Of a stretch of DNA of 64,000 nucleotides, positions 9,675 to 26,719 are shown one piece after another (positions within the stretch are counted from its first letter, which is position 1; each line of letters begins with the position of its first letter). Under the pieces are notes generated by a model. That model searched no databases. It worked only from the letters and a program-made list of their open reading frames with translations, and had not been told where the DNA came from. The stretch is from positions 124,001-188,000 of the forward strand of contig CP036296.1 of the NCBI GenBank assembly GCA_007751255.1, given 5' to 3'. The position numbers and the translations under genes were made by a program. This DNA is from Engelhardtia mirabilis. Its GTDB lineage: Bacteria > Planctomycetota > UBA1135 > GCA-002686595.

Positions 9675-10060
9675 CGGGTGTAGGAAGCAGGTCTTGGGAC
9701 ACACGACCCGTGGCAGAGCCCACCGCGGCGGCGAACCGAACGAACCCGGATGTAATAGCCATGTAAGTGGCAGTTACCGGCCCGACTGGGCCGAAAGCCT
9801 CTGCCCGACCCCGCCCGCGGTATCAGTGGATGCGGCGGTCCTGTTATGCATCCCCGGGACCTGTCCCAATGGCTGACGCCCGCGACGAGCGGCCCTTGGG
9901 TAGACAGAGCCCCGGATTGCGGTCTCGGGCCAAAAAACCTTCCATACGTTTGCCTCGAACCGTCCCTAGGTCCGGAATGGCCCGCGGTGAGGTCCGTAAG
10001 GCCCACGCACCGTCCCCCTATCCGCCGTGCCGCACCCTGCGCCGCTGCGTCCCTTCTGCC
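9675..10060. other. Divergent intergenic region upstream of the amidohydrolase array
   Basis: About 385 bases between the minus-strand hypothetical gene and the first amidohydrolase-like gene. It must carry the promoter of the array. It is less GC-rich than its surroundings around 9929-9952 (a run of six A followed by CCTTCCATACGTT), with TTGCGG at 9917-9922 and TACGTT at 9945-9950 as weak -35/-10 candidates. No terminator or riboswitch recognised. Confidence 0.4.
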
Positions 10061-11509
10061 ATGCGTGAACTCCGCACCTGCCTGCCGCTGGTGATCGGCC
10101 TCCTCGCCGCCCCCACGGCCCTGGCCGCACCGGTCACTCCTCCCGTCCACCCGCTCGCCGTGCCGACGGCAGTCGCCGGGACCTCCGTCGACGGCACTTT
10201 CGAGGGCGACGACACCTCCGAGGGCGAAAGGGCCGATGGTGACGCGGTCGAATCGGCTCCCGCCGTTCTGATCCACGCCGGACGCGTCATCGTCCGGCCT
10301 GGCAAGGAGCTCGAAGGGGTCGACGTGCTGATCGAGGGTGGCCGCATCGCCGCCGTCGGCGTCGGTCTCGAAGTGCCCGAGGGCGCTCGCGTGATCGAAG
10401 GCGCGGTCGTTTGCGCGGGCTTCATCGATCCTTGGTCGACCCTGGGCATCGACGGCGCCAGCCTCAGCGATCGCGGCGCCGGGCCGGCCACGCGCACGGT
10501 GGACGGCTTCGACCCCTACGCCGAGAAGGCCTGGCGCGAAGCGGCCCTGGCCGCGGGCGTGACGGTTGCGCGCATCCAAGCGGGGGCCGGCTCGCGCATC
10601 GGCGGCTTGGGCGCGATGGTTCGCAACGATCGCAACGCGTCCTTGGATTCGATCCTGCTGTCTGACGCCTGCGTCGCGGCCCAGGTCGAGGGCGGCGACG
10701 TCTTCGAGCGCCTCGACTCGGTGGAGAAGATCGTCCAGTCGATCGAGAAGGGTGACCGCTATCGCCGCTCGCAGATCGACTACGAGAGCGACCTGGCCGA
10801 GTGGGAGGAAGCCATCGCCAAGGCCGAGAAGGAGCTCGAGGACGACTTCAAGAAGGCCAAGAAGGACCGCAAGAAGGAGATGGACGAGGCCCGCGAGAAG
10901 GGCAAGGAGTTCAAGGAGAAGCGCTACAAGGAGGACTCCCGCCCGCGGGCTCCGCGCTTCGACGCCGACTCCCAGGTCCTGGCGCGCGTGGCCAGCGGTG
11001 AGCTGCCGATCGTGATCGAGGCCCACCGCGTGGCGGAGATGCGCCTCTTGCTCGAGCTCATGGCCAAGCAGCCCCGCACCCGCTGGATCCTGGCCGGGGC
11101 GTCCGACGGCCACCTCATCGCCGAGGAGCTGGACGATGCCGGCGTCACCGTCCTGGTGGTGCCCGAGCGCCGTGGACTCGGCGGGCGCTTCGGTGCCAAG
11201 GAACTCCAACTCGCCGGACAACTGCAGTCCGCGGGTGTCGACGTGATGATCGGGACCGCTGGCGACAGCGAGGTCCGCGACCTGCCGCTCCTGGCGGCGA
11301 TGGCGGTGGGGCACGGCCTCGACCGCGAGGCCGCCCTGGCGGCGATCACCACTCGCCCGGCGCGAGCCTTCGACCTGGCCGATCGGGCGGGCACCGTCGA
11401 GGTCGGCAAGAACGCCGACCTGGTCGTGCTCACCGGCGATCCCCTCGCCTCTTCGTCGCGCGTGCAGTTCGTCGTGCTCGGTGGCGAAGTCGTCGTCGAG
11501 CGAGAGTAG
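10061..11509 (+). CDS. Amidohydrolase-like exported protein 1, metal site lost
   Basis: 482 aa. Signal peptide MRELRTCLPLVIGLLAAPTA (cleavage after LAA). The composite amidohydrolase fold is recognisable from the N-terminal small beta domain (VLIHAGRVIVRPGKELEG, IEGGRIAAVG) and the C-terminal end (AGTVEVGKNADLVVLTGDP). The strand that normally carries DxHxH reads FIDPWSTLG, so both metal-binding His are gone. Residues about 236-292 form a long Lys/Glu coiled coil, followed by GELPIVIEAHRVAEM, the order seen in a broad COG1228 subfamily. It is therefore probably a pseudoenzyme or binding subunit. First gene of the array; 124 bases separate it from the next. Confidence 0.88.
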   Translation: MRELRTCLPLVIGLLAAPTALAAPVTPPVHPLAVPTAVAGTSVDGTFEGDDTSEGERADGDAVESAPAVLIHAGRVIVRPGKELEGVDVLIEGGRIAAVGVGLEVPEGARVIEGAVVCAGFIDPWSTLGIDGASLSDRGAGPATRTVDGFDPYAEKAWREAALAAGVTVARIQAGAGSRIGGLGAMVRNDRNASLDSILLSDACVAAQVEGGDVFERLDSVEKIVQSIEKGDRYRRSQIDYESDLAEWEEAIAKAEKELEDDFKKAKKDRKKEMDEAREKGKEFKEKRYKEDSRPRAPRFDADSQVLARVASGELPIVIEAHRVAEMRLLLELMAKQPRTRWILAGASDGHLIAEELDDAGVTVLVVPERRGLGGRFGAKELQLAGQLQSAGVDVMIGTAGDSEVRDLPLLAAMAVGHGLDREAALAAITTRPARAFDLADRAGTVEVGKNADLVVLTGDPLASSSRVQFVVLGGEVVVERE

Positions 11510-11633
11510 CCCGGCCGTCTCTTTCGCGTCCCGTCCACGTCCCCGTCGCGCTCCCTCCAATGGGGCGCCGTGGGGGCGAATCCACCGACCGAGCGGGGCA
11601 ATCGCACCGCCTCCCGTACCACCCCCGAAAGCC

Positions 11634-12770
11634 ATGCATGCAACCCTGATCGGCCTCGCCCTCGCGCTGGCCCCCGGGCTGCCCGACGCCCCCGAATCCG
11701 TCGCGACAACGAACGGCGTTGTCGTGAACGGTGCTGCTGCGCCGGTCTTCGCGATCAAGGCGACCACGGTCGTCGTCGGCGACGGCAACGTCCTCGAGAA
11801 CGGCATCGTCGTCATCGAGGGCGGCCGCATCCGCGACGTGGGCGTCGGCCTGACGCTGCCCGAGGGCACCAACCTGGTCGAGCACGACGGTGTGCTCACG
11901 GCAGGCATGGTCGCCCCCCAGAGCAACCTGCTGCCCGCCAGCGAGCGCACGGACTCCACGCGACCCTTCCTCGAAGGGGCCGAGTTGCGGTTCGGCTTCG
12001 ACCCGCAGACGCAGGCGTGCGAGCAAGCGGCGGCAGCCGGGATCACCACTGCGGTGCTCACGCCCGCGGCGTCCAACGTCGTCGGCGGCTTGACGGCTGT
12101 GGTCAAGACCCACGGCGGCAAGGTCGTGAAGGGCAAGGCACACCTGGCCCTCTCGGTCAACGCGGCGGCGGCCAACACGGACCGTTACCCAACCAGCTAC
12201 TCGGGCGTGATCGCCGAACTCGATGCGCGCCTGGGCGAGGGCGCCGAGGGCGTGTACGCCGAGGCTCGCTCGGGCGCCCTGCCGGTGCTGATCGCGGCCA
12301 CCACCGAGGCCGACGCCCAGCGCGCCATGGCCCTGGCCAAGCGCCACGGTCTGCGCGGCGCCCTGCTCGGCGCACGCCGCGTCGGCGAGCAGCAGGTCGA
12401 GAGCCTGAGGAGCAGCGGCCTCGCCGTGGTCTTCGACAGCTTCGGCCCGGGACTGGGCGAGCGCTCGATCAACGCCATGTTGGCGGTCGTCGAGGCCGGC
12501 CTGCCCTTCGCCTTCGAGCTGACCGACGCCACCCGCTTCCGCTTCGACGGCGCCGCCCTGGTGCGCGCCGGGGCCGATGCCGACACCGTCTGGAAGGCCA
12601 TGACCTCGGGCGCCGCCGCCATCGCCGGCGTCGGTGACCGCGTCGGCACCCTGCGCCGCGGGTTGGACGCCGACCTGCTTCTTTGGAGCGGCCACCCGCT
12701 CGACCTGACCAGCGTGCTCGAGGCCGTCTATGTCGGCGGCGAGCGCGTGCACGGAGGTGACGACCAATGA
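11634..12770 (+). CDS. Amidohydrolase-like exported protein 2, metal site lost
   Basis: 378 aa from the ATG at 11634, giving the short signal sequence MHATLIGLALALAPGLPDAP; the longer upstream frame is unlikely. Domain landmarks: TTVVVGDGNVLENGIVVIEG at the start, GITTAVLTPAASNVVGG in the middle and VGTLRRGLDADLLLWSGHP at the end. The DxHxH segment is replaced by LTAGMVAPQSNLL, and no downstream His/Asp ligand pattern survives, so catalysis by the usual mononuclear or binuclear mechanism is not expected. It lacks the coiled-coil insert of protein 1. The stop overlaps the start of the next gene (ATGA), so the two are translationally coupled and may be made in equal amounts. Confidence 0.85.
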   Translation: MHATLIGLALALAPGLPDAPESVATTNGVVVNGAAAPVFAIKATTVVVGDGNVLENGIVVIEGGRIRDVGVGLTLPEGTNLVEHDGVLTAGMVAPQSNLLPASERTDSTRPFLEGAELRFGFDPQTQACEQAAAAGITTAVLTPAASNVVGGLTAVVKTHGGKVVKGKAHLALSVNAAAANTDRYPTSYSGVIAELDARLGEGAEGVYAEARSGALPVLIAATTEADAQRAMALAKRHGLRGALLGARRVGEQQVESLRSSGLAVVFDSFGPGLGERSINAMLAVVEAGLPFAFELTDATRFRFDGAALVRAGADADTVWKAMTSGAAAIAGVGDRVGTLRRGLDADLLLWSGHPLDLTSVLEAVYVGGERVHGGDDQ

Positions 12771-14032
12771 TCGTTTCGACCCTCGCCGCCGCCTGCGCCG
12801 CGGTGCTCTTCTCTGGACCCGTCGCCGGGCCCGTCATCGGTGGCGTCGCGACCGACGACTATATCAATGGCGTCGCGTCGGACGACCAAGAGACCAAGCG
12901 CTCGTGGACGATCAGCGCCGATGCGATCTACACCGCCGACGGCAGCGTGATCGAGAACGGCTTCATCCGCGTCCAGGACGGCAAGATCGTCGCCATGGGG
13001 CCCGGTGGCCCGAGTGGCGGCGACGTGATTCGAGTCGGCGCGATCACGCCCGGCTTGATCGACCTGAGCCTGCGCGTCGCCGCCAGTTGGAACACCGTCG
13101 AACAGGGCAGCGAGGTCACCGCCAATATGCGGATGGCCGACGCTGTCGACCTGTTCGACGAGGACTGGCAGCGCGCTCTGCGCGGCGGCGTGACCACCGC
13201 TCTGGCGACGCCCCTCGATCGCAACGTGATCGGCGGCCTCGGCGTCGCGCTCAAGACCGGCGGTGAGCCGACCATCGAAGCGCGCCAGGTGGCGGCAGAC
13301 GTGGTCCTGCGCGGCTGCGTCGGCAGCCTGCCGAGCTCCGGCAACCGGCCCGCCTTCCAGCGCCCGAACTCGATCTTCAACCGCCGGCCCACGACTCGCA
13401 TGGGCGTCGAATGGGAGGCTCGCAAGGCCTTCTACGACGCCATGGTGGCAGCGGCAGACGAGTCGAAGAGCTTCCCGGGCGCCGAGCAGCTGCAGGCTGC
13501 CATGGCCGGCGAGCTGCCCTTCATGGTCCAGGCCGCGACGACCCAGGACATCCGCACGACGCTGTTCCTGAAGGACGAGTTCGGCATTCCGAACCTGATC
13601 CTCGACTCGGCCGCCGAGGCGTGGAAGGAGCCCCAGATGGTCCAGCGCTCAGGCGCCTCGGTGGTCCTGCCGCCCTTCACCTGGGACGGACGGACCGACG
13701 TCGACGGCGCCGCGATGCCCTGGAACACCGCCGCTGGTCTGGCCGAGCTCGGCGTGACCTTCGCCCTCTCCGGGCACGGCAGCAGCGAGCCCGACCAACG
13801 CCTGTCGATGCAGCCCCTCTACGCCATGCGTGGTGGACTCGACTTCGACACGGCCCTGGCCTCGGTGACCCGCGTGCCGGCCGAGATGATCGGCATCTCC
13901 GATCGCGTCGGCACCCTCGCCATCGGCAAGGACGCCGACCTGTGCCTGTGGAGCGGCGTGCCCTTCGAGGCCACGTCCGCCGTCGTGGGCGTGATGCTCG
14001 AAGGCGACTTGGTCGTCGATCCGCGTGACTGA
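12767..14032 (+). CDS. Amidohydrolase-like exported protein 3, metal site lost
   Basis: 421 aa. Signal peptide MIVSTLAAACAAVLFSGPVAG. The beta-domain (ADAIYTADGSVIENGFIRVQ, DGKIVAMGPGG) and the terminal strand (VGTLAIGKDADLCLWSGVP) are typical. Where active enzymes have GxxDxHxH this one has TPGLIDLSLRVA, so the metal ligands are missing; the place of the catalytic Asp reads LSGHGSSEPD. GGVTTALATPLDRNVIGGLG aligns with the conserved GVTT...GG loop of the family. Starts within the stop of protein 2 (ATGA overlap). Probably exported and non-hydrolytic; a ligand-binding or partner role is inference from the array context. Confidence 0.85.
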   Translation: MIVSTLAAACAAVLFSGPVAGPVIGGVATDDYINGVASDDQETKRSWTISADAIYTADGSVIENGFIRVQDGKIVAMGPGGPSGGDVIRVGAITPGLIDLSLRVAASWNTVEQGSEVTANMRMADAVDLFDEDWQRALRGGVTTALATPLDRNVIGGLGVALKTGGEPTIEARQVAADVVLRGCVGSLPSSGNRPAFQRPNSIFNRRPTTRMGVEWEARKAFYDAMVAAADESKSFPGAEQLQAAMAGELPFMVQAATTQDIRTTLFLKDEFGIPNLILDSAAEAWKEPQMVQRSGASVVLPPFTWDGRTDVDGAAMPWNTAAGLAELGVTFALSGHGSSEPDQRLSMQPLYAMRGGLDFDTALASVTRVPAEMIGISDRVGTLAIGKDADLCLWSGVPFEATSAVVGVMLEGDLVVDPRD

Positions 14033-14102
14033 AACCCTCCCGCTCTATTCCGACTCTGACGAGCGACCCCGTACAGCAAGCAATCCAACGGAGCCCTCAC
14101 CG

Positions 14103-15554
14103 ATGAACCATCGAACGAGCCGCCAAGCGGGAATCGGCAGCCGCCTCTTCACCGGCATCGCCTTCGCCGCCGTAGCCACCGCGCCCTTCGCCCAAGCCGA
14201 CAAGCTGGTGATCGAAGCTGGCCGCATCATCCAGAACTCGGGAACCGAGATCGAAAACGGCGTGATCGTGGTCGAGGACGGCCGCATCGTCGCCATCGGT
14301 CCGGCCGCCGAGGTCGAGAAGCCCTGGGACGCGCCCGTGGTGGGCGGGCCCGAGCTGGTCGCCTTCCCGGGCTTCATCGAAGCCCACTCGAACCGCGGCA
14401 TGGACCGCCCCAACGAGAACATCGACGTCGCGCCGTTCCTGGACGTGCGCGACTCGATCGACCCGATCAACCTCTACTTCGAGGACTGCCTGCGCTGGGG
14501 GGTCACGACGATCAACGTCCAGCAGGGCAACGACACGGTCGTCGCCGCCAAGGGACGCATCGTGCATCCGACCGGGATGACCGTGGAAGAGATGACCGTG
14601 CGCCCGAACTACGGGCTCAAGCTCTCCGCGGCGCCCAAGCGCGGCAACTCGCGCGCCACCCAGGCCCAGGCCCTGCGCGGCGCATTCGGCGACCTGCAGC
14701 GCTACCTCGAGGACGTCGTCGCCGACGCCCGTCAGGGCGGCGACCTGGCCCGCCGCGAGGCCCTCTACCAGGGTCGCGACATGGAAGGCGAGAAGGCCAA
14801 GGGCCGCGCCATGGGCGGCAGCACCTGGAAGGTCGACGGCCTCGAGCTGATCCCGCGCGGCGCAATCGACGAGCAGCAGGAGCCCCTCCTGGAGCTGGTC
14901 GAGGGCCGCTACGACGCCTTCGTCTGGTGCGGCAGCCCCCGCGACGTGCACCTCGCGATCGACATCGCGACCCAGAACGGTTTCCTCGATCGGACCACGC
15001 TGGTGCTCGACAGCTCGTGCTGGAAGGCCGCTGACGTGATCGCCGCCGCGGGCCTCGACGTGATCCTGCAGGGGTCGCAGATGGACACCGAGACCGACCC
15101 GGTCACCGGTGAGGAGACCGAGACCTTCGTTCCCGGTGTGTTCGCGGAGAAGGGCATCACCTTCGCCCTCTCGAGCGAGAACGCCAGCAGCAACTCCCTG
15201 TGGTTCCAGGCGGCCCGCGCCGTGGCCCACGGGCTCGACCGGGCCGCGGCGTTGGACGCCGTGACCACCACCCCGGCGGCCATCCTGGGCCTTGGCGACC
15301 AGGTTGGCAGTCTCGAGGTCGGCAAGCTGGCCGACATCCTGCTGCTCTCCGGCGACCCGCTCAGCTCGCAGTCGTGGGTCGAGCACGCCTTCATCGAAGG
15401 CAACCACGTCTACGACCGCAGCAAGGACGTCCGCAACAAGTACATCTTCGAGGGTCAACAGCCCCTCGGTGCCGGCTCCGCGTCGCCCCAGGGCGTCGAG
15501 AGCGTCGGTGTGGTGGAAGAGTCCAACGACGACGAAGACGCCGAAGAGAAGTGA
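14103..15554 (+). CDS. Amidohydrolase-like exported protein 4, metal site reduced to one His
   Basis: 483 aa from the ATG at 14103, which has GGAG 10 bases upstream and gives a signal peptide ending near APFAQA. The family pattern is clear: LVIEAGRIIQNSGTEIENG, then FPGFIEAHSNRG where the usual DxHxH would be (only the first His remains, and D is E), then WGVTTINVQQGN and, at the end, VGSLEVGKLADILLLSGDP. The region LSSENASSNS replaces the Asp-bearing loop. After the fold comes a tail of about 45 residues ending in acidic NDDEDAEEK. It is the least degenerate of the inactive-type members but still lacks a full metal site. Two bases separate it from protein 5. Confidence 0.86.
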   Translation: MNHRTSRQAGIGSRLFTGIAFAAVATAPFAQADKLVIEAGRIIQNSGTEIENGVIVVEDGRIVAIGPAAEVEKPWDAPVVGGPELVAFPGFIEAHSNRGMDRPNENIDVAPFLDVRDSIDPINLYFEDCLRWGVTTINVQQGNDTVVAAKGRIVHPTGMTVEEMTVRPNYGLKLSAAPKRGNSRATQAQALRGAFGDLQRYLEDVVADARQGGDLARREALYQGRDMEGEKAKGRAMGGSTWKVDGLELIPRGAIDEQQEPLLELVEGRYDAFVWCGSPRDVHLAIDIATQNGFLDRTTLVLDSSCWKAADVIAAAGLDVILQGSQMDTETDPVTGEETETFVPGVFAEKGITFALSSENASSNSLWFQAARAVAHGLDRAAALDAVTTTPAAILGLGDQVGSLEVGKLADILLLSGDPLSSQSWVEHAFIEGNHVYDRSKDVRNKYIFEGQQPLGAGSASPQGVESVGVVEESNDDEDAEEK

Positions 15555-15556
15555 CG

Positions 15557-18508
15557 ATGCATCCCCTGCTCCTGACCCTCGCTGCCGGCGCGCTCGCCGC
15601 CCCCGCGCCCGCGGGCGCTCCCGCCCTAGCCGTAGCCGGTGACACCCTCGTGATTCGCGCGGGGACGATCCTGACCGTCGACGCCGCGGGGACCACCCTC
15701 GAGAACGGCGCGATGCTCGTCTCCGATGGACGCATCGTCGCCATCGGTGCCGATCTCGTCGTACCGGTCGGGGCGCAGGTGATCGACTACGGACCCGATG
15801 CCGTGCTGGTGCCCGGCTTCGTGGCCGCCAGTAGCGATCTGGCCCAGGGCTCACCGGCCCCGCGGACCGCGGCGCCGGACCTCTCGGCGGTGGACGGTTT
15901 CGACTTCTACGCGACCAACGTCGACGGCTTGGCCGCGGGCGTGACCTCGGCCTACATCAATCCGGCGCGAGGCCGCTTGATCGCAGGTCACGGCGCGGTG
16001 GTGAGCTTGGGGGCGGGCGAGCCCCAGGCGCGCGTGCTCAACGCCGACGCCGCGATCCACGGCGCGATCAGCGAAGAGGCCCGCAGCACCCCCGGCTACT
16101 GGATGCCGCCGATCCCCGCCACGGTGGACGTGGGTCTGGGCGTTCCCGAGGAGCAGTTGCCGCGCACCACCATGGGAGCGGTGCTGGCGTTGCGAGAGCT
16201 TCTGGACGGCGTCGCAGCCGGTGAGGAACTCGCTGCCTACGGGCCGAAGACGATCGCCGACCTCAAGGGCCTGATGGACGCCGGCGCCCCCTGGCGCATG
16301 ACCGCCATCACGGAGTCCGAGATTCGCGCCCTGCTCGCGGTCGCTCGCGAGCGCGGCCTGCGTCTGGTGATCCACGGCGCGCAGTACAGCGGCGACTTGG
16401 CCGAGGAGATTGCTGAGGCCGGCGCTTCCGTCGTGTACGAGGTGCCCTTCCGCGGCAACCGCGGCGCGAGCGATCGCGGCAAGGGCGACGACGACCGCTG
16501 GCCCGAGCTCGACGTGCCCGCCCGCCTCGCGGCGGCCGGCGTCCCGGTGGCGATCAGCCCGGCCTCGGGCTCGCCCCTGCGCGACCTGCACTTCGCAGCC
16601 GCCCTGGCCCTCAGCGGCGGACTCGGCAAGGACCTGGCCCTCGCCGGTGTGACCCGCATTCCGGCCGAGATCTACGGCGTCGGCGATCAGATCGGCAGCC
16701 TCGAGGTCGGCAAGCGCGCCGACTTCGTCGTGCTGAACGGCCAGCCCCTCGGGGGCAGCCCGGGCGTGCGTGCCACCTGGATCGGCGGCGAGCTGGCCTG
16801 GAAGCCCAAGTCGGGTTCGAGCAGCGGGTCCGCTGCCCGCTCGAGCACGACGGTCGTGTCCGTCGATGAGCTGTACTTGGGCGACGGCGAAGTCATCAGC
16901 CCCGGTGAACTGCTGATCCGCGGCGGCAAGATCGTCGAGGTCGGACGGCGCGTGGCCCGCCCCGGTGGCGCCACGGTCGTGCGCGGCGCCGCGGCGATGC
17001 CCGGGATCGTTGACGCCCTCGGGCACCTGGGTCTGGACGGCTCCCGCCGCATGCCGGCCACGGATTTCGACCTGACCCAGATCGTCGAGCCCGGCGATTC
17101 GGTCGATCGACGGGTCGCCCGTGCCGGCGTCACCACGGTCGTCCTGGACTTCCAGGGCAGCAACGGTTCTGGCGCGCCCATGCTCGCCTACCGTCCGGCC
17201 GCCGAGGACTTCGACAGCCTGATCGTCGAGACCCCCGCGGCCCTGCGCCTGAGCTGGACCGAATCCAACCGCGCGGACTCCGGTTCGAACGTGCGCAAGC
17301 TCCTCGAGAAGGCGGTCGAGTACCGCAACGACTGGCTCAAGTACGCCGCCGAGCTGGCGGAGTACGAGCCCGAAGTCGTCCCGCCGACCTTCACCCTGCC
17401 CGAGCCGGAAGTCGACGCCGACGACGACGGTGGGGACGAGGACAAGAAGGACGACGAGGACAAGAAAGAGAAGAAGAAGAAGCGCAAGGACAAGGCGCTC
17501 GATCCTGACGCCACCACCGGCATCTGGCTCGGCGGACTCACGCCGGCCGGGTCCGAAGAGGGTGCGGAGCCGGTTCGACTGCGGATGCAGCTGCGCCTCG
17601 ACGGCGAGAGCGTCAGCGGCTTCCTGCGCTGCGCGGCCCTCTCGTCGCAGCTGGTCGAGGTCTCTGGCAACTTTGCGACCTCGAGCGAAGAGGATGAGCC
17701 CGAGCCCCACGAGCTGGAAGGCACGTTGACCTTGCACGGCAAGGGAGCCGACGGGCCCTTCACCCTGACGGCCAAGTACTCGGACATCCTCGAGGAGCCC
17801 GAAGAGGACGTCACGCTCGAGGGCACCGTGGCCTACGGCGGCGCCGACCACGCGATCGCGGTCACCCGCCAGTCGCGCGAGTACCCGGTGGCCAAGCGCC
17901 CCGAGCCCAGCGAAGATCCGAAGTCGCCGGAGACTCCGAAGGGCGCTCCGAAGGAGCCCCGCGTCGATACCAAGCTCGAGCCCCTGCGGAGGGCCATCGA
18001 GGGCCGGGTCGCGGTGCTGATCGAGGTCGATCGCGCCGACGAGATCATCGCCTGCGTGGACGCCTGCGCGGCCGCGGGGATTCGTCCGGTGCTGATTGGT
18101 GCGAGCGACGCGTTGCTGGTGGCCGACAAGGTCGCGAGCCGCGTGGCGGGCCTGTTGGTCTCCACGACGGTGACCTCCGGTGCGACTACCGAGGACGACG
18201 GTTACCGCGTCTCGAACCGCATGGCCGACCTGCAGGCGGCGGGCTACCGGGTGGCCTTCTACTCGAACGCCGAAGAGGGGGCCGCGGATCTGCCGCTGAT
18301 GGCCGCCTACGCGGTGGCCGGTGGGATGAGCCCGACGGGAGCCCTGCGCGCCTTGACCTCCGATTCTGCCGCGATGATGGCCATCGACGACCAAGTCGGG
18401 TTGCTCGCGGCCGGCCGCAGCGCCGACGTGTTGCTGCTCGACGGTCCGCCGCTCGAGGCGGGCACGCGCGTGTTGCGGGTCTGGGTGGCCGGTGAGGAGG
18501 TTCGCTGA
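15557..18508 (+). CDS. Tandem two-domain amidohydrolase-like exported protein 5
   Basis: 983 aa, about twice the family length. Signal peptide MHPLLLTLAAGALAAPAPAG. Domain 1 (about 30-415) ends with QIGSLEVGKRADFVVLNG; domain 2 (about 435-983) restarts with DELYLGDGEVISPGELLIRG and ends with VGLLAAGRSADVLLLDGPP. Neither has DxHxH: domain 1 reads VPGFVAASSDLA and domain 2 MPGIVDALGHLG. Domain 2 carries a helical segment, then an Asp/Lys-rich run (about 615-650) and an inserted beta-rich module (about 660-790, starting TGIWLGGLTPAG) that looks like a separate domain of unknown kind. It is best read as a fused pair of pseudoenzymes. Its 3' end also holds the ribosome-binding site of gene 6. Confidence 0.87.
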   Translation: MHPLLLTLAAGALAAPAPAGAPALAVAGDTLVIRAGTILTVDAAGTTLENGAMLVSDGRIVAIGADLVVPVGAQVIDYGPDAVLVPGFVAASSDLAQGSPAPRTAAPDLSAVDGFDFYATNVDGLAAGVTSAYINPARGRLIAGHGAVVSLGAGEPQARVLNADAAIHGAISEEARSTPGYWMPPIPATVDVGLGVPEEQLPRTTMGAVLALRELLDGVAAGEELAAYGPKTIADLKGLMDAGAPWRMTAITESEIRALLAVARERGLRLVIHGAQYSGDLAEEIAEAGASVVYEVPFRGNRGASDRGKGDDDRWPELDVPARLAAAGVPVAISPASGSPLRDLHFAAALALSGGLGKDLALAGVTRIPAEIYGVGDQIGSLEVGKRADFVVLNGQPLGGSPGVRATWIGGELAWKPKSGSSSGSAARSSTTVVSVDELYLGDGEVISPGELLIRGGKIVEVGRRVARPGGATVVRGAAAMPGIVDALGHLGLDGSRRMPATDFDLTQIVEPGDSVDRRVARAGVTTVVLDFQGSNGSGAPMLAYRPAAEDFDSLIVETPAALRLSWTESNRADSGSNVRKLLEKAVEYRNDWLKYAAELAEYEPEVVPPTFTLPEPEVDADDDGGDEDKKDDEDKKEKKKKRKDKALDPDATTGIWLGGLTPAGSEEGAEPVRLRMQLRLDGESVSGFLRCAALSSQLVEVSGNFATSSEEDEPEPHELEGTLTLHGKGADGPFTLTAKYSDILEEPEEDVTLEGTVAYGGADHAIAVTRQSREYPVAKRPEPSEDPKSPETPKGAPKEPRVDTKLEPLRRAIEGRVAVLIEVDRADEIIACVDACAAAGIRPVLIGASDALLVADKVASRVAGLLVSTTVTSGATTEDDGYRVSNRMADLQAAGYRVAFYSNAEEGAADLPLMAAYAVAGGMSPTGALRALTSDSAAMMAIDDQVGLLAAGRSADVLLLDGPPLEAGTRVLRVWVAGEEVR

Positions 18509-18509
18509 T

Positions 18510-19820: not shown

Positions 19821-19873
19821 CCGCGAATCTGGCGAACTGAGCAGTCAAGACGCTGCCCCAAGCGATCGAATCC

Positions 19874-21367
19874 ATGAACTTCAATCGAGTCCTCGGCTCC
19901 ACACTGCGCACCCTTGGGCTTCCCGCGGGACCGATGCTCGCGTGCGGCGCCATCGCTCCGCTCGCCCTGTCTTGCGTCGCTTCGGCGGGGGTCGTCCCGG
20001 TCGGGGTCGAGGTGAACCGGTCGGGCGCCTCGGATTCCGGCTCCGCTACTGCTGCGAGCGCGGATGGCGCGGCCGCCATGGGTGCTGCTCCCGCCGTCGC
20101 GCAGGCGCACCCGGGGCACGTGCCGCGGATGCAGTCCGTCGAGGGTGCCGTCGCGGGGGCGCCGGGCGGGCCCGGTCTGGCGATTCACGCGGCCAAGATC
20201 CTGACCTGCACCATGGAAGGCCCGGCGGTCTTCGACAACGCGGTGCTGACCGTCAAGGACGGCAAGATCGAGGCCGTCGGCGCGGCCCGTGACGTCACGA
20301 TCCCCGGGGGCTACGAGGACCTCGACCTGGGTGATCGCTGGCTGATGCCGGGGATGATCGATCTGCACTGCCACATCGGCGGCACCTTCGACATCAACGA
20401 CGGCATCTTCCTGGCCAACCCCGGTCTGCGGGCGTCGACCGCGGTGCGGCCGTACAACTCGATGCTGCAGATGGCCGTGCGCTCGGGCGTGACGACCGTG
20501 CTGTTCATCCCCGGCTCGGGTACCAACGTCGGCGGTCAGGGCGTGCTGCTCAAGACCGGGCACGAGCACTACGACGACGCCGAGGTGCGCAACCCCGGCA
20601 GTCTGAAGGTCGCCCAATGGGGCAACCCGGAGCGCTGGCTCTTCGGTCCCGGCAAGACGTTCGAGAACTACACGATCCGCAACATTTTCACCCGCGGTCG
20701 GGCCTACGCGAAGCTGTGGAGCGACCACGACGGGAACGGAGGCCCGGCGCCCCAGGTCGACCCGCAACTCGAGATCTTCCGGCACCTCTTCGCAGGCGAC
20801 GCCCAGGTCTCGGTCCACACGCAGATCTACCAGGTCGTGGTCGCGACGATCATGATCATCAAGGGCGAGATGGACGTCGATGTGTACATCGACCACGGCA
20901 CCTTCGACGGCTATCTGGCGGCGCCCCTGGCGGCGAAGATGGGCGTCAACGCCATCCTCGGCCCGCGCAACGTGGACGCCCCGAACCGCGGGATCATGAA
21001 CTGGGTCGGCGCCAACCCCGAGCGCATCCAGGGCGTGGCGGCTGGCTACCAGGAGCGCGGCCACCCGATGATCGGTTTCAACACCGACTCGCCGGTGATT
21101 CCGCAGGAAGAGCTCTTCCTCCAGGCTTCGATGGCGGTGCGCCACGGCTTCAAGGACGACCTGATGCAGACCGTGCGCGGTTTGACGATCGTTCCAGCCG
21201 TTACCGCCGGGATCGACGATCGGGTCGGTTGTCTCGCGGTAGGGCGCGATGCCGACATCGTGGTGCTCGGCGGCCACCCGGCCGACCCGCGCACGCAGAT
21301 CGAGCGCGTGTTCATCGACGGGGTCAACATCTACGAGCGCGATCAGGAGCATCAGGTCGTCTGGTGA
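19874..21367 (+). CDS. Secreted imidazolonepropionase-like amidohydrolase 7, intact metal site
   Basis: 497 aa. A long N-terminal leader (signal segment about 15-40, then an Ala/Gly/Ser-rich stretch to about 95) precedes the fold. Metal and catalytic residues: H165 and H167 (IDLHCHI), H315 (SVHTQ), H341 (IDHGTF) and D405 (NTDSPV). It shares long blocks with genes 6 and 8, such as LFIPGSGTNVGGQGVLLKTG and IGFNTDSPVIPQEEL, so the three are recent paralogues. Ends with ADIVVLGGHPADPRTQIERV. Its stop overlaps the next ATG (TGATG), coupling translation. Confidence 0.9.
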   Translation: MNFNRVLGSTLRTLGLPAGPMLACGAIAPLALSCVASAGVVPVGVEVNRSGASDSGSATAASADGAAAMGAAPAVAQAHPGHVPRMQSVEGAVAGAPGGPGLAIHAAKILTCTMEGPAVFDNAVLTVKDGKIEAVGAARDVTIPGGYEDLDLGDRWLMPGMIDLHCHIGGTFDINDGIFLANPGLRASTAVRPYNSMLQMAVRSGVTTVLFIPGSGTNVGGQGVLLKTGHEHYDDAEVRNPGSLKVAQWGNPERWLFGPGKTFENYTIRNIFTRGRAYAKLWSDHDGNGGPAPQVDPQLEIFRHLFAGDAQVSVHTQIYQVVVATIMIIKGEMDVDVYIDHGTFDGYLAAPLAAKMGVNAILGPRNVDAPNRGIMNWVGANPERIQGVAAGYQERGHPMIGFNTDSPVIPQEELFLQASMAVRHGFKDDLMQTVRGLTIVPAVTAGIDDRVGCLAVGRDADIVVLGGHPADPRTQIERVFIDGVNIYERDQEHQVVW

Positions 21368-22707
21368 TGTCCGCCCGGCCGCAGCCCAACTCCCGCGCTG
21401 GTCGCGGGTTCCACGCGCTGATCGCGCGCGGCACCGTCAGGCTGGCGGCGGCCTGCGTCGTGTTCGGGGCGTCGGCAAGTGGGGCCGCGATCGATGGTGC
21501 CCGTCCGGTTGATCCGCCGCCTGCCATGGCGTTGCGCGCCGCGAAGATCCTGACCTGCGCGGCCGATGGCGAGGGGCAGGTCCTCGATCACAACTGGGTG
21601 CTGGTGCGCGACGGCAAGATCGAGGGCTTCCTCGACGCCCGCACGGACGAACCGGGACCCGAGTACGCGCGAGTGGACCTGGGCGACCGCTGGCTGATGC
21701 CGGGGATGGTCGACCTCCACAGCCACGTGGGCGGCAGCTTCGACATCAACGGGGCCGTCTACCAGGCGAACCCGGGTCTGCGCGTGTGGACCTCGGTGGT
21801 CCCCGGCAACCGCACGATGCGGGTGGGCCTGGCCTCCGGAGTGACCACGGTGCTGTTCATCCCCGGATCGGCGACCACGGTCGGGGGGCAGGGCGTGCTG
21901 ATCAAGACCGGCTTCGACGGATGGGAGCGCACCCTCGTGCGCCAGCCCGGTTCGCTCAAGGTGGCTCAAGCCGACAACCCCAAGCGCTGGGGCTACGGCA
22001 TGGAGCGGAGCATGCTGAACTGGCAGATCCGCGACGTGATGCGGCGCGGAGCAGCCTACGGCGAGCGCTGGGAGGCCTACGAGCGCGGCGAAGGCGAGCA
22101 GCCGCCGATCGACATCCAGTTCGAGATCTTCCGGCCCCTGGTCGCTGGCGAGGCGCAGATCTCGACCCACACCCAGGTGGCCCAGGTGGTCGCCGCCAGC
22201 GTGCGGATCATGGTCGAGGAGTTCGGCCTGCCGATGTTCATTGACCACGGGACGATGGACGGCTTTCGCGTGGCCGACTACGTCATCGAGCAGGGCGTGC
22301 CGGCGATTCTCGGCCCGCGCAACTTCAGCTCACAGGTCAAGGGCCGTGGGATCGACCACGACGGCAAGATCGAGGGCGTGGCCGCCAACTACCAGGCCTC
22401 CGGTCACCCCCAGATCGGGTTCAACACCGATGCGCCGGTGATTCCCCAGGAGGAACTGTCCCTCCAGGCAGGGATCGCGGTGCGCTTCGGGTTCGAGGAC
22501 GACGCTCTGCAGACCGTCCGCGGGCTCACGATCGTGCCGGCCATCACGGCCGGGATCGACGACCGAGTCGGCAGTCTGGAGATCGGCAAGGACGCGGACA
22601 TCGTGGCGCTCAGCGGTCACCCGGGTGACCCGCGCACAGCGGTGGATCGGGTCTGGCTGGAAGGCGAGTTGGTCTACGAGGCGAGCGCGGGGAGGCGGCT
22701 GTTCTGA
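21367..22707 (+). CDS. Secreted imidazolonepropionase-like amidohydrolase 8, intact metal site
   Basis: 446 aa from the ATG at 21367 (overlapping the previous stop); the signal segment is about residues 20-40 (VRLAAACVVFGASASGAA). Active-site set: H118 and H120 (VDLHSHV), H268 (STHTQ), H294 (IDHGT) and D355 (NTDAPV). Paralogue of genes 6 and 7 throughout, with the same GGQGVLIKTGF and GSLKVAQADNPKRWG blocks. Long antisense and upstream frames that overlap this gene have no family features and were ignored. Overlaps gene 9 by one base. Predicted to work in the periplasm or cell surface with its neighbours. Confidence 0.9.
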   Translation: MSARPQPNSRAGRGFHALIARGTVRLAAACVVFGASASGAAIDGARPVDPPPAMALRAAKILTCAADGEGQVLDHNWVLVRDGKIEGFLDARTDEPGPEYARVDLGDRWLMPGMVDLHSHVGGSFDINGAVYQANPGLRVWTSVVPGNRTMRVGLASGVTTVLFIPGSATTVGGQGVLIKTGFDGWERTLVRQPGSLKVAQADNPKRWGYGMERSMLNWQIRDVMRRGAAYGERWEAYERGEGEQPPIDIQFEIFRPLVAGEAQISTHTQVAQVVAASVRIMVEEFGLPMFIDHGTMDGFRVADYVIEQGVPAILGPRNFSSQVKGRGIDHDGKIEGVAANYQASGHPQIGFNTDAPVIPQEELSLQAGIAVRFGFEDDALQTVRGLTIVPAITAGIDDRVGSLEIGKDADIVALSGHPGDPRTAVDRVWLEGELVYEASAGRRLF

Positions 22708-23936
22708 TGTCGTTCCTCGGTTGCACACACCTCGCGGTCGCGGCGTTCACGGGCTTGGTCGCGTTGGCGCCCGCGGCCCGTGCGGGGCAGCAGGGGGCTG
22801 ACGGCGAGGTCCTCGCCCTGCGCTTCGATCGGGTCGTCACCTGCGATGCCAAGGACACGGTCTACGACCCCGGCATGATCCTGGTGCAGGGCGGCAAGCT
22901 GACCTACGTCGGCCCGCCGATCGACGCACCCGAGGGCACCGAGCTGGTCGAGCTCGAGGGCTGGGCCATCCCGGGCATGGTCGATCTGCACAGCCACGTG
23001 GTGACCGACGGCTGGGGCGGCATCAACGACATGGTCCTGCCGGCCAACCCGGACCTGTCGTCCGCGCCCACGATCAAGCCTTCGAACCAGCAGCTGCGCC
23101 TGGCCTGCGCGTCGGGCGTCACGACCCAGTTCCTGATCCCCGGCAGCGGCACGTCCATCGGCGGCTTCGGCGTCCTGTTCAAGTCGAAGACCCAGGCCAC
23201 CTACGCGGAGTGCGTGCTCGCCGATCCGGGGGGCATGAAGGTCGCCCAGGCCTACAACCCCGAGCGCGGCGGCGGCGACGTCGGCCGCACTCGGGCTGGC
23301 CTGTACTGGATCCTGTCCCGCGTCAATCGCGAGGCGATCGCCTCCCGCGAGCACGGCTTGGACGTCTTCCACCTGCGCAACCTGGCCAAGGTGCACGCGA
23401 AGGAGCTGCCGGTGCTGATCCACACGGCCGGCTCCGACGGCGTGACTGCCACCGTGCGGATGTGGCGCGACGAGTTTCCCACCATGTCGGTGCTCAGCCA
23501 CGGCAGCTTCGACGGTTGGACCACCGCGCCCTACGTGGCGCGCATGGGCATGCCCGTGAACCACGGCCCCCGCACCTTCGACACCTACGCCCGGGACGGC
23601 CGCATCGTCGGCTCCTCGCGGGAGTACGTCGAGGCGGGCGTGCCGCTCTTCTCCCTCAACACCGACGCGCCGGTGATTCCGGCGCACGAGCTCTTCCTGC
23701 AGGGCTCCATGTCCGCGCGCCAGGGCCTCGACTCGCGTCTGATGCTGCGCGCTCTCACCATCCACCCCGCGGAGTCCTTCGGGATCGGCGATCGGGTCGG
23801 GAGCCTCGAGGTCGGCAAGGACGCCGACATCGTGGTCTTCGACGGCGATCCGATCGATCCCCGTTCTCACGTGGAACACGTCTGGATCGACGGCGAGCTG
23901 CAGTACCGGCCCTCCGTCCACGGTCAGTGGTTCTAG
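22707..23936 (+). CDS. Secreted imidazolonepropionase-like amidohydrolase 9, intact metal site
   Basis: 409 aa. Signal peptide ends near APAARA. Active-site set: H95 and H97 (VDLHSHV), H239 (LIHTAG), H265 (LSHGS) and D320 (NTDAPV), and the standard end VGSLEVGKDADIVVFDGDP. It is more distant from genes 6-8 than they are from one another: the GGQGVLLKTG block is GGFGVLFKSK and the last third differs. This suggests an older split and possibly another substrate. ATG overlaps the stop of gene 8; 54 bases follow before gene 10. Confidence 0.9.
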   Translation: MSFLGCTHLAVAAFTGLVALAPAARAGQQGADGEVLALRFDRVVTCDAKDTVYDPGMILVQGGKLTYVGPPIDAPEGTELVELEGWAIPGMVDLHSHVVTDGWGGINDMVLPANPDLSSAPTIKPSNQQLRLACASGVTTQFLIPGSGTSIGGFGVLFKSKTQATYAECVLADPGGMKVAQAYNPERGGGDVGRTRAGLYWILSRVNREAIASREHGLDVFHLRNLAKVHAKELPVLIHTAGSDGVTATVRMWRDEFPTMSVLSHGSFDGWTTAPYVARMGMPVNHGPRTFDTYARDGRIVGSSREYVEAGVPLFSLNTDAPVIPAHELFLQGSMSARQGLDSRLMLRALTIHPAESFGIGDRVGSLEVGKDADIVVFDGDPIDPRSHVEHVWIDGELQYRPSVHGQWF

Positions 23937-23990
23937 CGCCCCCGCGCGCGCGCACCACGAAGGACCGCTGACCCTCTCCTACCCGCAACC

Positions 23991-25202
23991 ATGATCCTCA
24001 GCACCGTCACCATCGGCTCACTGGCGTGGCTCGCCCCGCCCGCCGCGGAACCTGTCCCGGACCTCTTGGCTCTGCGCGTCGGTCGCGCCGAGACCATCAG
24101 TCAGGGCACGATCGAGAATGCCGTCATCCTGATCGATGGCGGTCAGATCGTGATCGTCGGCGAGGACCTGCCGATCGAGCGCGGGATTCCGATCATCGAC
24201 CTACCCGACGCCGTGGTCATGCCGGGCTTCGTCAACTGTCGCTCGCGCCTGGGTCTCGACAGCCGCGCCGGGACGGTCAGCGACCCGGAAGTACGCGTGT
24301 CGGACGAGATCTACCCGCGCACCTCGGACTGGACCGACGTACTCGAGTACGGAGTCACGACCATCGGTCTGTACCCGCCCGGTCGCGGTATTGCGGGGCT
24401 CGCCGCCGCGATTCGACCCAAGGGTGACAGTGTCGATGAGCTGCTGCTCGCCGACGACTGCTATCTCACCATGTACATCGGAGCCGACCGCTCGGCCAAG
24501 AAGCTCGTGCGCGACGCGTTCGAGGAGGTCGACAAGTACATGGAGAAGGTCGAGAAGGCCCGCGAGAAGTGGCAGAAGGACCAGGACAAGAAGAAGAAGG
24601 ACGACGAGAAGGAGGCTTTCGAGCCGCCCGTCCCGGAGCCCGAGGTCCTGCCCATGCTGAAGCTGCGGACCCAGGAGCTGCGCGCACAGTTTTCGATCTC
24701 GAAGGCCGCCGACTACCTGCACCTCTTGGACGTGCTCGAGTCGGAGGCTGACGTCCTCTACGACATCCAGATCGATCTGCGCGACGACCTCGATCTCTTC
24801 TACATCTCGGACCAGCTCGGCGAAGCCCACACGCGCGTCATCTGCGACCCCGAGATCATCGACCATCCCGGGACTCGACGGGCGCGCAACCTGCCCGCCG
24901 AGCTGCACGCCGCGGGGGCCAAGGTCGCCTTCATCCCGCGCAGCGACAGCGTCACCGGCAACCGGGACTGGCTCGAGGACGTGGCGCACATGGTCGCCTA
25001 CGGCCTGGACCGTCAAGTGGCCCTGCGCGCCATGACGCTCGAGCCGGCCGAGGCGCTCAACGTGGGCGCGCTCGTCGGCAGCATCGAGGCCGGCAAGGCC
25101 GCCAATCTCCTGATCTTCGACGGGGACCCCTTCGAGGCCCAGACCGAACTGACCGCCGTGATGCTCGAGGGCGAGATCGTCCACGGGGAGCTCGACCAGT
25201 GA
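23991..25202 (+). CDS. Amidohydrolase-like exported protein 10, metal site lost
   Basis: 403 aa with a short hydrophobic start (MILSTVTIGSLAWLAPPAA). The HxH strand reads MPGFVNCRSRLG, so no metal ligands remain. Residues about 170-210 form a Lys/Glu coiled coil (EVDKYMEKVEKAREKWQKDQ and on), and KLRTQELRAQFSISKAADYL follows, the same layout as protein 1 and the second half of protein 5. It ends VGSIEAGKAANLLIFDGDP. With proteins 1-5 and 11 it belongs to the pseudoenzyme group of the array. Stop overlaps the GTG start of protein 11 (GTGA). Confidence 0.86.
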   Translation: MILSTVTIGSLAWLAPPAAEPVPDLLALRVGRAETISQGTIENAVILIDGGQIVIVGEDLPIERGIPIIDLPDAVVMPGFVNCRSRLGLDSRAGTVSDPEVRVSDEIYPRTSDWTDVLEYGVTTIGLYPPGRGIAGLAAAIRPKGDSVDELLLADDCYLTMYIGADRSAKKLVRDAFEEVDKYMEKVEKAREKWQKDQDKKKKDDEKEAFEPPVPEPEVLPMLKLRTQELRAQFSISKAADYLHLLDVLESEADVLYDIQIDLRDDLDLFYISDQLGEAHTRVICDPEIIDHPGTRRARNLPAELHAAGAKVAFIPRSDSVTGNRDWLEDVAHMVAYGLDRQVALRAMTLEPAEALNVGALVGSIEAGKAANLLIFDGDPFEAQTELTAVMLEGEIVHGELDQ

Positions 25203-26719
25203 AAGCGATGAAGATTCTGCCCACGTTCCTGCTCGCCCCTGCCGCACTGGCGCTGGGTGGCATCTGCTCCGCCCTGACCCCCGGCTTCGCGCCCACTGGC
25301 TTCCTCGACGACGACGAGGAGGACGAGGCCGCCGTCGCTGAAGAGGTCGAGGAGGAGGAGGGGCCCCATTGGTTGCTGCTCGAGGGCGGCGACATCTTCA
25401 CGGGGACCGGCGCGGTCTTGCGCGGCGCGGACCTGCTGTCGAAGGACGGCATCATCGAGGAGATCGGCTACGACTTCTGGGTGCCCGAGGATGCCGAGAG
25501 AATCGACTGCAGTGGCCTGCGGCTGTACCCGGGCATGGTGGCCCTTTCGGCCACTTCGCGGGTGACGCAGGGCTCCTTCGCGCCGGCCGGAGAGGTGGAG
25601 CAGCCGGGCTACGACCCGTCGCTCGACGTTCCCGCCGAGGACGGCGTCGACATCTGGGACTTCGACGCGATCGATGCCGCTGCCGCCATGACCGAGGCGG
25701 AGTCGCGCATCGCCGAGGCCTACGACCCCTTCAGCACCTACTTGATCCTGACTCTCGCCGCTGGCATCACGACGGTCGAGCAGTCGAACGCGGCCGTCAA
25801 GCTGCGCCGCTACGAGATCAAGGACGTGGTCATGCGCGAGGGCTTCCTGATCTCGCTCAGCTATTCGACCGCGGACTCGAGGCGCCGCACCCGCGCCGAC
25901 TTCGCCCTGGCGTCGACCTACCTGCGCGACTTCCGCGCCTGGGAGGAGGGCGGCAAGGATGGGGACGAGCCGAGCAAGAAGGGCGTCAACTCCAGCGTCC
26001 TGAAGATCCTGATGGGTGACGGCCGTGCGAAGTTCAACGCGGACGACCGCGACGAACTGCTGGCCATCGCGCGCTTGGCCCAGGAGTTCGGCTTCCGGCC
26101 GGTGATCGAAGGTTGTCGCGAGGGTTGGGTCGTGGCGGACGAGCTCGGTCGGGCCGGCGCGACGGCGATCGTCTCGCCGCGCGATCGTCGCTGGAAGGAC
26201 GAGCTTCAGGTTGCGGACGGCGGCTCGAGTATCGAGAACGCCGCCATCCTCCATGCCGCCGGTGTGCAGGTCGCGGTCGAGCCGCTCTCCGGCTCGATCG
26301 ACCTCGGTGGGATCGCGGGTCGAGATCTGCTGCACCTGAACATCGACGCCGGCTTTGCGATCCGCGGTGGGCTGTCGGAGCAGGCCGGGCTCGAGGCCGT
26401 TACGATCGTCCCCGCCCGCGTCATGGGCGTCGACCATCGGGTCGGCTCGCTCGAGGTCGGCAAGGATGCCGACGTGCTCGTCACCGACGGCGATCTGCTG
26501 CACTACGAGACGTTCGTCCAGTACGCGGTCGTCGGAGGCAAGCTCGCCTACGAGAAGTCCGAAGAGCTCTTCTACGCCCACATCCGACCGCTCCCCGAGC
26601 GCGAGGTGGTCGAGGCCTCCCAGGAGGGGGACGTCGAGGTGGAGGACGCCGACGACGAGGGCGACGATGAGGACGGGGATGACGACGGAGACGAGGACGA
26701 GGACGAGGACGAGGACTGA
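25199..26719 (+). CDS. Amidohydrolase-like exported protein 11 with acidic tails, metal site lost
   Basis: 506 aa. The GTG at 25199 overlaps the previous stop; an ATG at 25208 is equally possible. After the signal peptide comes an acidic stretch (DDDEEDEAAVAEEVEEEEG, about 37-55). The fold begins at LLLEGGDIFTGTGAVLRGAD and ends with VGSLEVGKDADVLVTDGD. The HxH strand is YPGMVALSATSRV, without His. The C-terminus (about 470-506) is nearly pure Asp/Glu with a few Gly/Val, ending DEDEDEDED. Such tails suggest cation binding or charge-based anchoring outside the cell; no covalent anchor is visible. Last gene of the array; the 136 bases after it hold GC-rich dyads but no clear T-run. Confidence 0.87.
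   Translation: MKAMKILPTFLLAPAALALGGICSALTPGFAPTGFLDDDEEDEAAVAEEVEEEEGPHWLLLEGGDIFTGTGAVLRGADLLSKDGIIEEIGYDFWVPEDAERIDCSGLRLYPGMVALSATSRVTQGSFAPAGEVEQPGYDPSLDVPAEDGVDIWDFDAIDAAAAMTEAESRIAEAYDPFSTYLILTLAAGITTVEQSNAAVKLRRYEIKDVVMREGFLISLSYSTADSRRRTRADFALASTYLRDFRAWEEGGKDGDEPSKKGVNSSVLKILMGDGRAKFNADDRDELLAIARLAQEFGFRPVIEGCREGWVVADELGRAGATAIVSPRDRRWKDELQVADGGSSIENAAILHAAGVQVAVEPLSGSIDLGGIAGRDLLHLNIDAGFAIRGGLSEQAGLEAVTIVPARVMGVDHRVGSLEVGKDADVLVTDGDLLHYETFVQYAVVGGKLAYEKSEELFYAHIRPLPEREVVEASQEGDVEVEDADDEGDDEDGDDDGDEDEDEDED

What the first reader, a model, noticed from the sequence alone, without database searches (positions are those of the whole stretch)
10061..26719. Sixteen-kilobase array of eleven exported amidohydrolase paralogues, active and metal-less
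Eleven adjacent same-strand genes encode twelve amidohydrolase-type domains, nearly all with signal peptides, and most gene pairs overlap or are separated by under 130 bases. Genes 6-9 have the full HxH...H...H...D set. Genes 1-5, 10 and 11 keep the fold but have lost HxH. Pseudoenzymes flanking active ones in a single transcript suggest a multi-subunit extracytoplasmic assembly, with the metal-less members acting as scaffold, substrate-binding or regulatory subunits. I know of pairs of such genes but not arrays of this size.
Basis: partly seen in the sequence, partly recalled or inferred. Interest (0 to 1): 0.9.

Follow-up and report, generated by a model that had tools for sequence, protein, structure and literature searches.

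The report
Conserved mostly metal-less amidohydrolase gene array
A row of eleven related genes, for proteins probably exported from the cell, pairs a few intact metal enzymes with seven relatives that lost the metal site, and much the same row recurs in many planctomycete bacteria, which points to an undescribed exported machine built almost entirely from one protein fold.

Summary
In detail: eleven same-strand genes (10061-26719), twelve amidohydrolase domains, gaps of 124 bases or less. g6-g9 carry all six metal ligands (H,H,K,H,H,D); g1-g5, g10 and g11 do not, and have no HxH elsewhere.

The row is old and conserved. The order g1-g2-g3-g4-g5(two fused domains)-[1 to 5 metal-bearing genes]-g10-g11 recurs through the window's class and, as eight genes with one metal-bearing gene, in other planctomycete families, patchily (199 of 254 sampled genomes outside the class have no marker). 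The ligands are complete in 87 of 87 metal-bearing-group domains but 1 of 327 metal-less-group domains. The metal-less genes are under purifying selection. Outside the class 48 of 55 genomes with any of three markers have all three; the array-type enzyme was never found without a metal-less marker (0 of 87). Neighbouring members are fused in some lineages; one genome split the row but kept both parts.

Best explanation: an exported hetero-oligomer with one catalytic subunit type, probably an exopeptidase or amidase, and eight pseudoenzyme domains in fixed places. Assembly, export and substrate are inferred, not shown. My text searches found no description.

The parts
10061..11509 (+). g1: amidohydrolase-fold protein without metal ligands, export-type N-terminus; charged helical insert
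   Evidence: PF01979 48.4 bits; ligand columns lost
11634..12770 (+). g2: amidohydrolase-fold protein without metal ligands here; ligands wholly or partly kept in some distant relatives
   Evidence: PF01979 22.7 bits, below the cut-off of 25
12767..14032 (+). g3: metal-less, export-type N-terminus; strongly conserved RRPTTRMG loop
   Evidence: PF01979 43.9 bits; conserved columns
14103..15554 (+). g4: metal-less as a set, but often keeps K and the first H; well conserved; acidic tail
   Evidence: PF01979 44.1 bits; A2, A4
15557..18508 (+). g5: two fused metal-less amidohydrolase domains; the second holds an inserted beta domain (about residues 655-773)
   Evidence: PF01979, two stretches; AlphaFold2 model pLDDT 86.1, pTM 0.62
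18510..19820 (+). g6: amidohydrolase with all six metal ligands (alternative start 18492)
19874..21367 (+). g7: amidohydrolase with all six metal ligands
21367..22707 (+). g8: amidohydrolase with all six metal ligands (alternative start 21364)
22707..23936 (+). g9: amidohydrolase with all six metal ligands; separate clade from g6-g8
23991..25202 (+). g10: metal-less, export-type N-terminus; charged insert
   Evidence: PF01979 45.6 bits
25208..26719 (+). g11: metal-less, export-type N-terminus; acidic tail (alternative start 25199)
   Evidence: PF01979 39.9 bits

Best explanation
The row encodes one exported hetero-oligomeric enzyme built from a single fold. The metal-bearing proteins (one ancestral gene type; here g6, g7, g8, plus g9) are binuclear metallohydrolases, most likely exopeptidases or amidases acting on small peptides or amides outside the cytoplasm. 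The eight metal-less domains (g1-g4, both halves of g5, g10, g11) each hold a fixed place in the assembly, where they build the particle and shape access to, or regulation of, the few active sites. They arose by duplication of active members that lost their ligands, in g2 and g5b step by step while already in the row. Shown: conservation, selection, co-occurrence, ligand loss, fusions. Inferred: physical assembly, export (from N-termini only), peptidase or amidase activity, the role of each metal-less domain.
For: Gene order conserved with gaps mostly under 100 bases across the class and, in the 8-gene form, outside it: 17 of 18 fetched loci have members from both ends of the row at one place, the other (L147) being a split row; also L172. 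All six ligands kept in 65 of 65 g6-8-type and 22 of 22 g9 domains, complete in 1 of 327 metal-less-group domains, window included. Metal-less genes under purifying selection in eight close pairs. Seven groups form single clades with SH-aLRT 97-100, five of the eight metal-less ones among them. Co-occurrence in 292 genomes: array-type enzyme at E 1e-100 or better in 87, none lacking both g4 and g11 markers. Fusions of neighbours: two domains in one frame at the g5 place throughout; g1 place with g2 in L150 and L157; g10 with g11 in L151. Split row with both parts kept in G249. Partial ligand sets in g2 and g5b of distant lineages.
Against: No complex was observed or predicted; pTM 0.62 for g5 means that even the mutual placement of its two fused domains is unsure. 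An operon of independent exported proteins with linked jobs would show much of the same conservation. g6-8-type copy number varies from 0 to 4, which fits a strictly fixed stoichiometry poorly unless copies exchange. The row is patchy: 199 of 254 sampled genomes outside the class have no marker at my cut-offs. g2 keeps all ligands in one lineage and g5b keeps four of six in a Phycisphaerae locus, so not every place is metal-less everywhere. Constraint on the metal-less genes is somewhat weaker than on the metal-bearing ones. No substrate evidence beyond distant homology.
Confidence: 0.6

Rival explanations
1. The metal-less members are exported substrate-binding or capture proteins that work beside the enzymes, in one pathway but not in one stable particle.
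For: Group-specific residues are conserved in several metal-less groups (g3 RRPTTR and g4 N104 E105; at the ligand columns g4 K 38 of 42 and first H 34 of 42, g10 R at the second H 31 of 39 and D 32 of 39), as expected of a kept pocket. Explains operon, selection and co-occurrence.
Against: Does not by itself predict fusions between neighbouring members nor eight separate groups kept together. Outside the class no Pfam family occurs in more than 3 of 50 flanking frames sent from 16 loci, so no shared transporter or receptor stands out.
Confidence: 0.2
2. Some metal-less members are enzymes with a new, metal-independent or differently liganded active site, so the row is a multi-enzyme pathway.
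For: Conserved residues at ligand columns in g4 and g10; many conserved columns in g3, g4 and g11 (75, 82 and 84, close to 96 and 97 in the metal-bearing groups).
Against: g1, g2 and g10 have few conserved columns (37, 32 and 35), and in most metal-less groups the ligand columns hold many different residues; ligand sets shrink by degrees in g2 and g5b, as in relaxation of catalysis.
Confidence: 0.1
3. A regulatory or folding role only: metal-less members are chaperones or inhibitors of the active ones before or during export.
For: The array-type enzyme was never found without a metal-less marker. A pseudo-dihydroorotase chain is needed for activity of its partner in Pseudomonas (start of the abstract of PMC7053772 in the listing).
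Against: Eight different dedicated chaperone domains for one enzyme type would be excessive; all have export-type N-termini.
Confidence: 0.07
4. Ordinary paralogue expansion with decaying copies.
For: The members are paralogues; g6-g8 are late copies; metal-less genes evolve somewhat faster.
Against: Purifying selection, the same order in distant families, co-occurrence.
Confidence: 0.03

Closest known systems
Thermotoga maritima amidohydrolase, PDB 3ooq (no function in the entry's title)
   Different: One metal-bearing protein; I looked at no gene neighbourhood of it. A text search for its code found no paper.
Prolidases, arginine carboxypeptidases and ochratoxin amidases of the amidohydrolase superfamily (PDB 2p9b, 3mtw, 2qs8, 3be7, 8ihq)
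   Same: Next solved relatives in sequence, and near ones in fold; basis for guessing an exopeptidase or amidase.
   Different: No NCBIfam cut-off reached among the models shown (Xaa-Pro dipeptidase NF051886: 73 bits at best against 500, 10 of 11 genes, best 25 models each).
Pseudomonas aeruginosa aspartate transcarbamoylase - pseudo-dihydroorotase complex (PMC7053772; start of the abstract seen in the listing)
   Same: An inactive amidohydrolase-fold chain that is a needed subunit of a hetero-oligomer.
   Different: One kind of inactive chain with an unrelated enzyme; here eight kinds of metal-less domain beside an enzyme of the same fold, probably exported.
Collapsin response mediator (dihydropyrimidinase-related) proteins
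   Same: Non-catalytic relatives of amidohydrolases that oligomerise (recalled; distant sequence hits such as 4b91).
   Different: Animal proteins, not in an operon with an active partner (recalled).
Pairs of one HxH-bearing and one metal-less amidohydrolase (separate or fused), as in Pontibacter L126-L129 and planctomycete loci L158, L159, L161
   Same: Same family, active plus metal-less side by side; in the tree the two kinds form two clades, each with Pontibacter and planctomycete rows.
   Different: Two domains, not nine or more.

Membership tests
Binuclear amidohydrolase superfamily enzymes (g6-g9) | Amidohydrolase fold | tested here: met
Binuclear amidohydrolase superfamily enzymes (g6-g9) | HxH, bridging K, H, H, D | tested here: met
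   All six in 65 of 65 and 22 of 22 domains, the window's four among them
Binuclear amidohydrolase superfamily enzymes (g6-g9) | Bound metal and hydrolytic activity | not testable with these tools
   needs purified protein
Amidohydrolase superfamily enzymes (g1-g5, g10, g11) | Amidohydrolase fold | tested here: met
Amidohydrolase superfamily enzymes (g1-g5, g10, g11) | Full metal ligand set | tested here: not met
   none of the eight window domains; 1 of 327 with relatives
Xaa-Pro dipeptidase NF051886 | NCBIfam curated cut-off of 500 bits | tested here: not met
   best 73 bits, g8; g10 was not scanned
ATCase - pseudo-dihydroorotase complex | Aspartate transcarbamoylase gene beside the inactive chain | tested here: not met
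   no such match among the window proteins scanned, immediate neighbours included
Hetero-oligomeric exported complex | Export | tested here: inconclusive
   hydrophobic N-termini in 88-100% per group against 1 of 18 for the neighbour; crude score only
Hetero-oligomeric exported complex | Physical contacts among members | not testable with these tools
   only single-chain predictions; fusions are indirect

The most novel reading that the evidence does not exclude
A previously undescribed extracytoplasmic molecular machine of Planctomycetota: a particle of nine or more paralogous amidohydrolase-fold domains in fixed places, eight of them pseudoenzymes, in which catalysis has been reduced step by step to one subunit type. 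It would be a one-fold analogue of proteasome-like specialisation, outside the cytoplasm.
Probability: 0.45. Interest if true: 0.93.

Novelty: new variant of a known kind. Interest (0 to 1): 0.82.

Why it matters
Pseudoenzymes are usually met singly beside an active relative. Here eight metal-less domains and one enzyme type are kept together in many families of a bacterial phylum (array-type enzyme in 87 of 292 sampled genomes, 19 families outside the window's class), and different lineages preserve different stages of the loss (six, five, four and three ligands left in g2 or g5b). That makes the question how and why catalytic subunits turn structural directly testable in one system. It also points to a large conserved and probably exported system of planctomycetes with no assigned function that I could find.

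Tried and rejected
Nucleoside salvage as the row's function: nupC, PNP, rpiB and deoC lie upstream and a TrpD-like gene downstream in many loci of the window's family (TrpD-like matches also in other families of the order, at 28-42% identity), but none was found in the 18 loci outside the class (tblastn at 1e-8), so I treat them as neighbours. The downstream gene first looked like thymidine phosphorylase, and my scripts call it deoA; NCBIfam places it nearer PRK07394 and TrpD, below cut-offs. Flanking frames outside the class: 50 of 88 candidates from 16 of 18 loci were scanned (L145 and L146 gave no candidate); no Pfam family is in more than 3.

Decay: contradicted by eight close pairs. Seven of the fifteen pairs run are distant and not used: four (L113/L111, L116/L117, L094/L101, L112/L117) gave 0.06-0.30 where defined; L082/L073 0.11-0.36; L103/L094 0.34-0.51; L051/L056 0.42-0.91, for active and metal-less genes alike. 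At 40-79% protein identity and extreme GC I judge these dS values unreliable. Row g3 of L085/L106 (1.24) is a misassigned truncated frame and was set aside.

HxH elsewhere in metal-less members: none in the window. Some regex hits in relatives' metal-less groups were checked by alignment: part sets in several, two being spurious frames of L107.

Internal promoters and terminators: none and two matches, fewer than in shuffles, uninformative.

The inserted beta domain of g5 has no Pfam match (141 aa) and no NCBIfam match (200 aa); its fold was not searched alone.

Rows dropped: one search used 13 of 18 outside loci (L147, L149, L150, L151, L157 left out for incomplete, extra or fused frames) and, from L011-L049, only frames within length limits. 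Apparent gene swaps come from sorting overlapping stop-to-stop frames. Named and unnamed loci overlap (for example L107 and L032 lie on contigs of one length, 37537, likewise L104 and L021, L054 and L026), so they are not independent sets.

The g4 cut-off for co-occurrence (3.1e-56) does not lie at a wide gap (next genome 1.4e-52), and in G153 and G189 the best g4 match looks like another paralogue; without these two g4 calls the count is 47 of 54 instead of 48 of 55.
Full report
What is there. The window is positions 124001-188000 of contig 1 of a 6.9-Mb genome. Its nearest named relatives are metagenome-derived genomes, most titled Planctomycetota, some only as bacterium. Eleven + strand genes fill 10061-26719. 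All match PF01979, ten over Pfam's cut-off; g5 holds two domains. Of 27 PF01979 matches in the genome 14 lie in this row. Only g6, g7, g8 and g9 have HxH and the full ligand set.

Conservation in the class. A search with g8 hit 31 of 31 genomes, the window's own and 30 relatives of its order. Reading their loci showed much the same row: g1-g2-g3-g4-g5-[metal-bearing genes]-(g9)-g10-g11, with gaps mostly under 100 bases. A g4 profile hit 151 of 151 genomes of the class at 1e-20 or better; by my count of the listing 143 of these reach 1e-60, the other 8 having only weaker, possibly paralogous matches. Of 79 named loci, 75 are titled as planctomycetes or only as bacteria, among them a Phycisphaerae contig (L119), and four are Pontibacter, which have only a pair of genes. 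Named and unnamed loci overlap. In the 53 named loci where both g1 and g11 are in view, g6-8-type copies number 0 (2 loci), 1 (17), 2 (20), 3 (11) or 4 (3), and g9 is present in 46. L064 shows four copies plus g9, five metal-bearing genes in all, without g11 in view.

Beyond the class. In 292 genomes of the phylum (at least 85% complete), g4-type matches at 1e-20 or better occur in 163, which includes other paralogues. I fetched 18 loci with strong g4 matches outside the class (L140-L157). In 17 the row runs from g1 (cut by the contig end in L151) to g11 with one gene of the g6-g9 type; the eighteenth, L147, stops after g5. That genome, G249, has its metal-bearing gene, g10 and g11 together on another contig (L170), away from contig ends, so its row is split and both parts are kept. 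Its congener G235 agrees, but there the second part begins 0.8 kb from a contig start (L171). In G207 of the same family the row is whole (L172), and in G166 it is unbroken from the contig start in g3 to g11 (L173). So the shortest common form is eight genes and nine domains, eight of them usually metal-less.

Co-occurrence. I counted by hand from the listings, with cut-offs g4 3.1e-56, g11 1.4e-74, metal-bearing array type 1e-100 (genome's best match). Outside the class (254 genomes) they occur in 53, 52 and 50 genomes; 55 have at least one and 48 have all three; 199 have none. The seven with one or two are G182, G189, G221, G226, G232, G294 and G348, four of them in more than 300 contigs. 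The g4 cut-off is close to paralogues; without two doubtful g4 calls (G153, G189) the figure is 47 of 54. In the class (38 genomes) g4 is in 38, g11 in 36 (G046 has a fragment at a contig start; in G023 the contig ends soon after g10, L034) and the metal-bearing type in 37 (not G054). The metal-bearing array type without both g4 and g11: 0 of 87. Its 50 outside genomes fall in 19 families.

Metal ligands. On one alignment of 414 domains, window included, six ligand columns read H, H, K, H, H, D in 65 of 65 g6-8-type and 22 of 22 g9 domains. Of 327 domains in the eight metal-less groups, one has all six (g2 of L032), one has four (a g10), and 159 have none. Some distant relatives keep part sets: g2 of L151 five of six, g5b of L119 four, g2 of L119 three. 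Unless ligands were regained, loss in g2 and g5b thus came after the row existed and went by steps.

Selection. Nei-Gojobori estimates for eight close pairs with dS under 1 give dN/dS of 0.03-0.38 for metal-less genes, mostly 0.05-0.15, and 0.025-0.15 for metal-bearing genes, mostly 0.03-0.10 (one misassigned row set aside). So both are constrained, the metal-less ones somewhat less. The highest values, 0.375 and 0.28, are g10 and g11 in one very close pair with dS near 0.1. Seven of the fifteen pairs run are distant and not used; some gave higher values for both kinds alike.

Tree. On 108 domains from ten arrays and six pair loci (quick method), g4, g5a, g5b, g10, g11, g9 and the g6-8 type each fall together (SH-aLRT 97-100); g1, g2 and g3 need 2, 2 and 3 changes. 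Many deep forks are open, so the order of duplications is not settled. Of 13 pair-locus rows, six HxH-bearing ones form one clade and six metal-less ones another, each with Pontibacter and planctomycetes; one long row (L160, 634-aa frame) falls with g3.

Fusions. The g5 place holds two domains in one frame in every array where it is in full view; L083 shows an additional g5a frame, and in several outside loci the second half scores best with another metal-less profile. The g1 place is fused to g2 in L150 and L157, and g10 to g11 in L151, each in one uninterrupted frame. Fusion of neighbours is indirect evidence of contact at one-to-one ratio.

Function. After 3ooq the solved relatives include prolidases, arginine or lysine carboxypeptidases, ochratoxin-degrading amidases and imidazolonepropionases. 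With export-type N-termini this suggests an exopeptidase or amidase outside the cytoplasm. No NCBIfam model shown reaches its cut-off (10 of 11 genes, best 25 models each), so the substrate is open. Nucleoside salvage genes flank the row in the window's family but were not found in the 18 outside loci.

Literature. Full-text searches showed no description of such an array. I saw listings and abstract starts only: 4 of 4, 4 of 4, 12 of 24, 0 of 0 and 12 of 189 papers; the library lacks most subscription papers. The nearest published parallel found is the Pseudomonas ATCase with an inactive dihydroorotase chain (PMC7053772, abstract start in the listing).

Judgement. New here are its range, the eight-gene core, the ratio of one metal-bearing gene type to eight metal-less domains, selection, co-occurrence, fusions, a split row and ligand loss by steps. 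A physical assembly is the best explanation (0.6) but remains to be shown.

Noticed in passing
window 9213-9704 (-): A divergent frame of about 163 aa just upstream of g1 has counterparts in five same-family relatives (36-43% identity) and no Pfam match.
   Followed up: partly
window 3615-9111 and 26856-27920: Nucleoside transporter, purine-nucleoside phosphorylase, DeoC and RpiB upstream and a TrpD-like protein downstream; they recur beside the row in the window's family, not in the 18 loci outside the class.
   Followed up: partly
L160 (G000:C1:1143000-1159999) and L161 (G000:C1:4766000-4783999): The same genome has two further small clusters: a 948-aa frame with an HxH-bearing and a metal-less half beside a 634-aa metal-less one, and a pair in which one has all six ligands.
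   Followed up: partly
L032, g2 frame at 11427 (-): g2 of this lineage has the complete ligand set, and the locus lacks a g6-8-type gene, keeping only g9: possibly a different choice of active members.
   Followed up: no
window 17519-17875 (+): Inserted beta-strand domain in g5b, mostly predicted with good confidence but without family match.
   Followed up: no
window 39846-44339 (+): Lhr-type large helicase, 1497 aa.
   Followed up: no
window 47695-57289 (-): A run of genes with an alginate-export-like protein, two adjacent phosphotransferase-family (PF01636) proteins, an ABC transporter and, further on, a glycosyltransferase.
   Followed up: no
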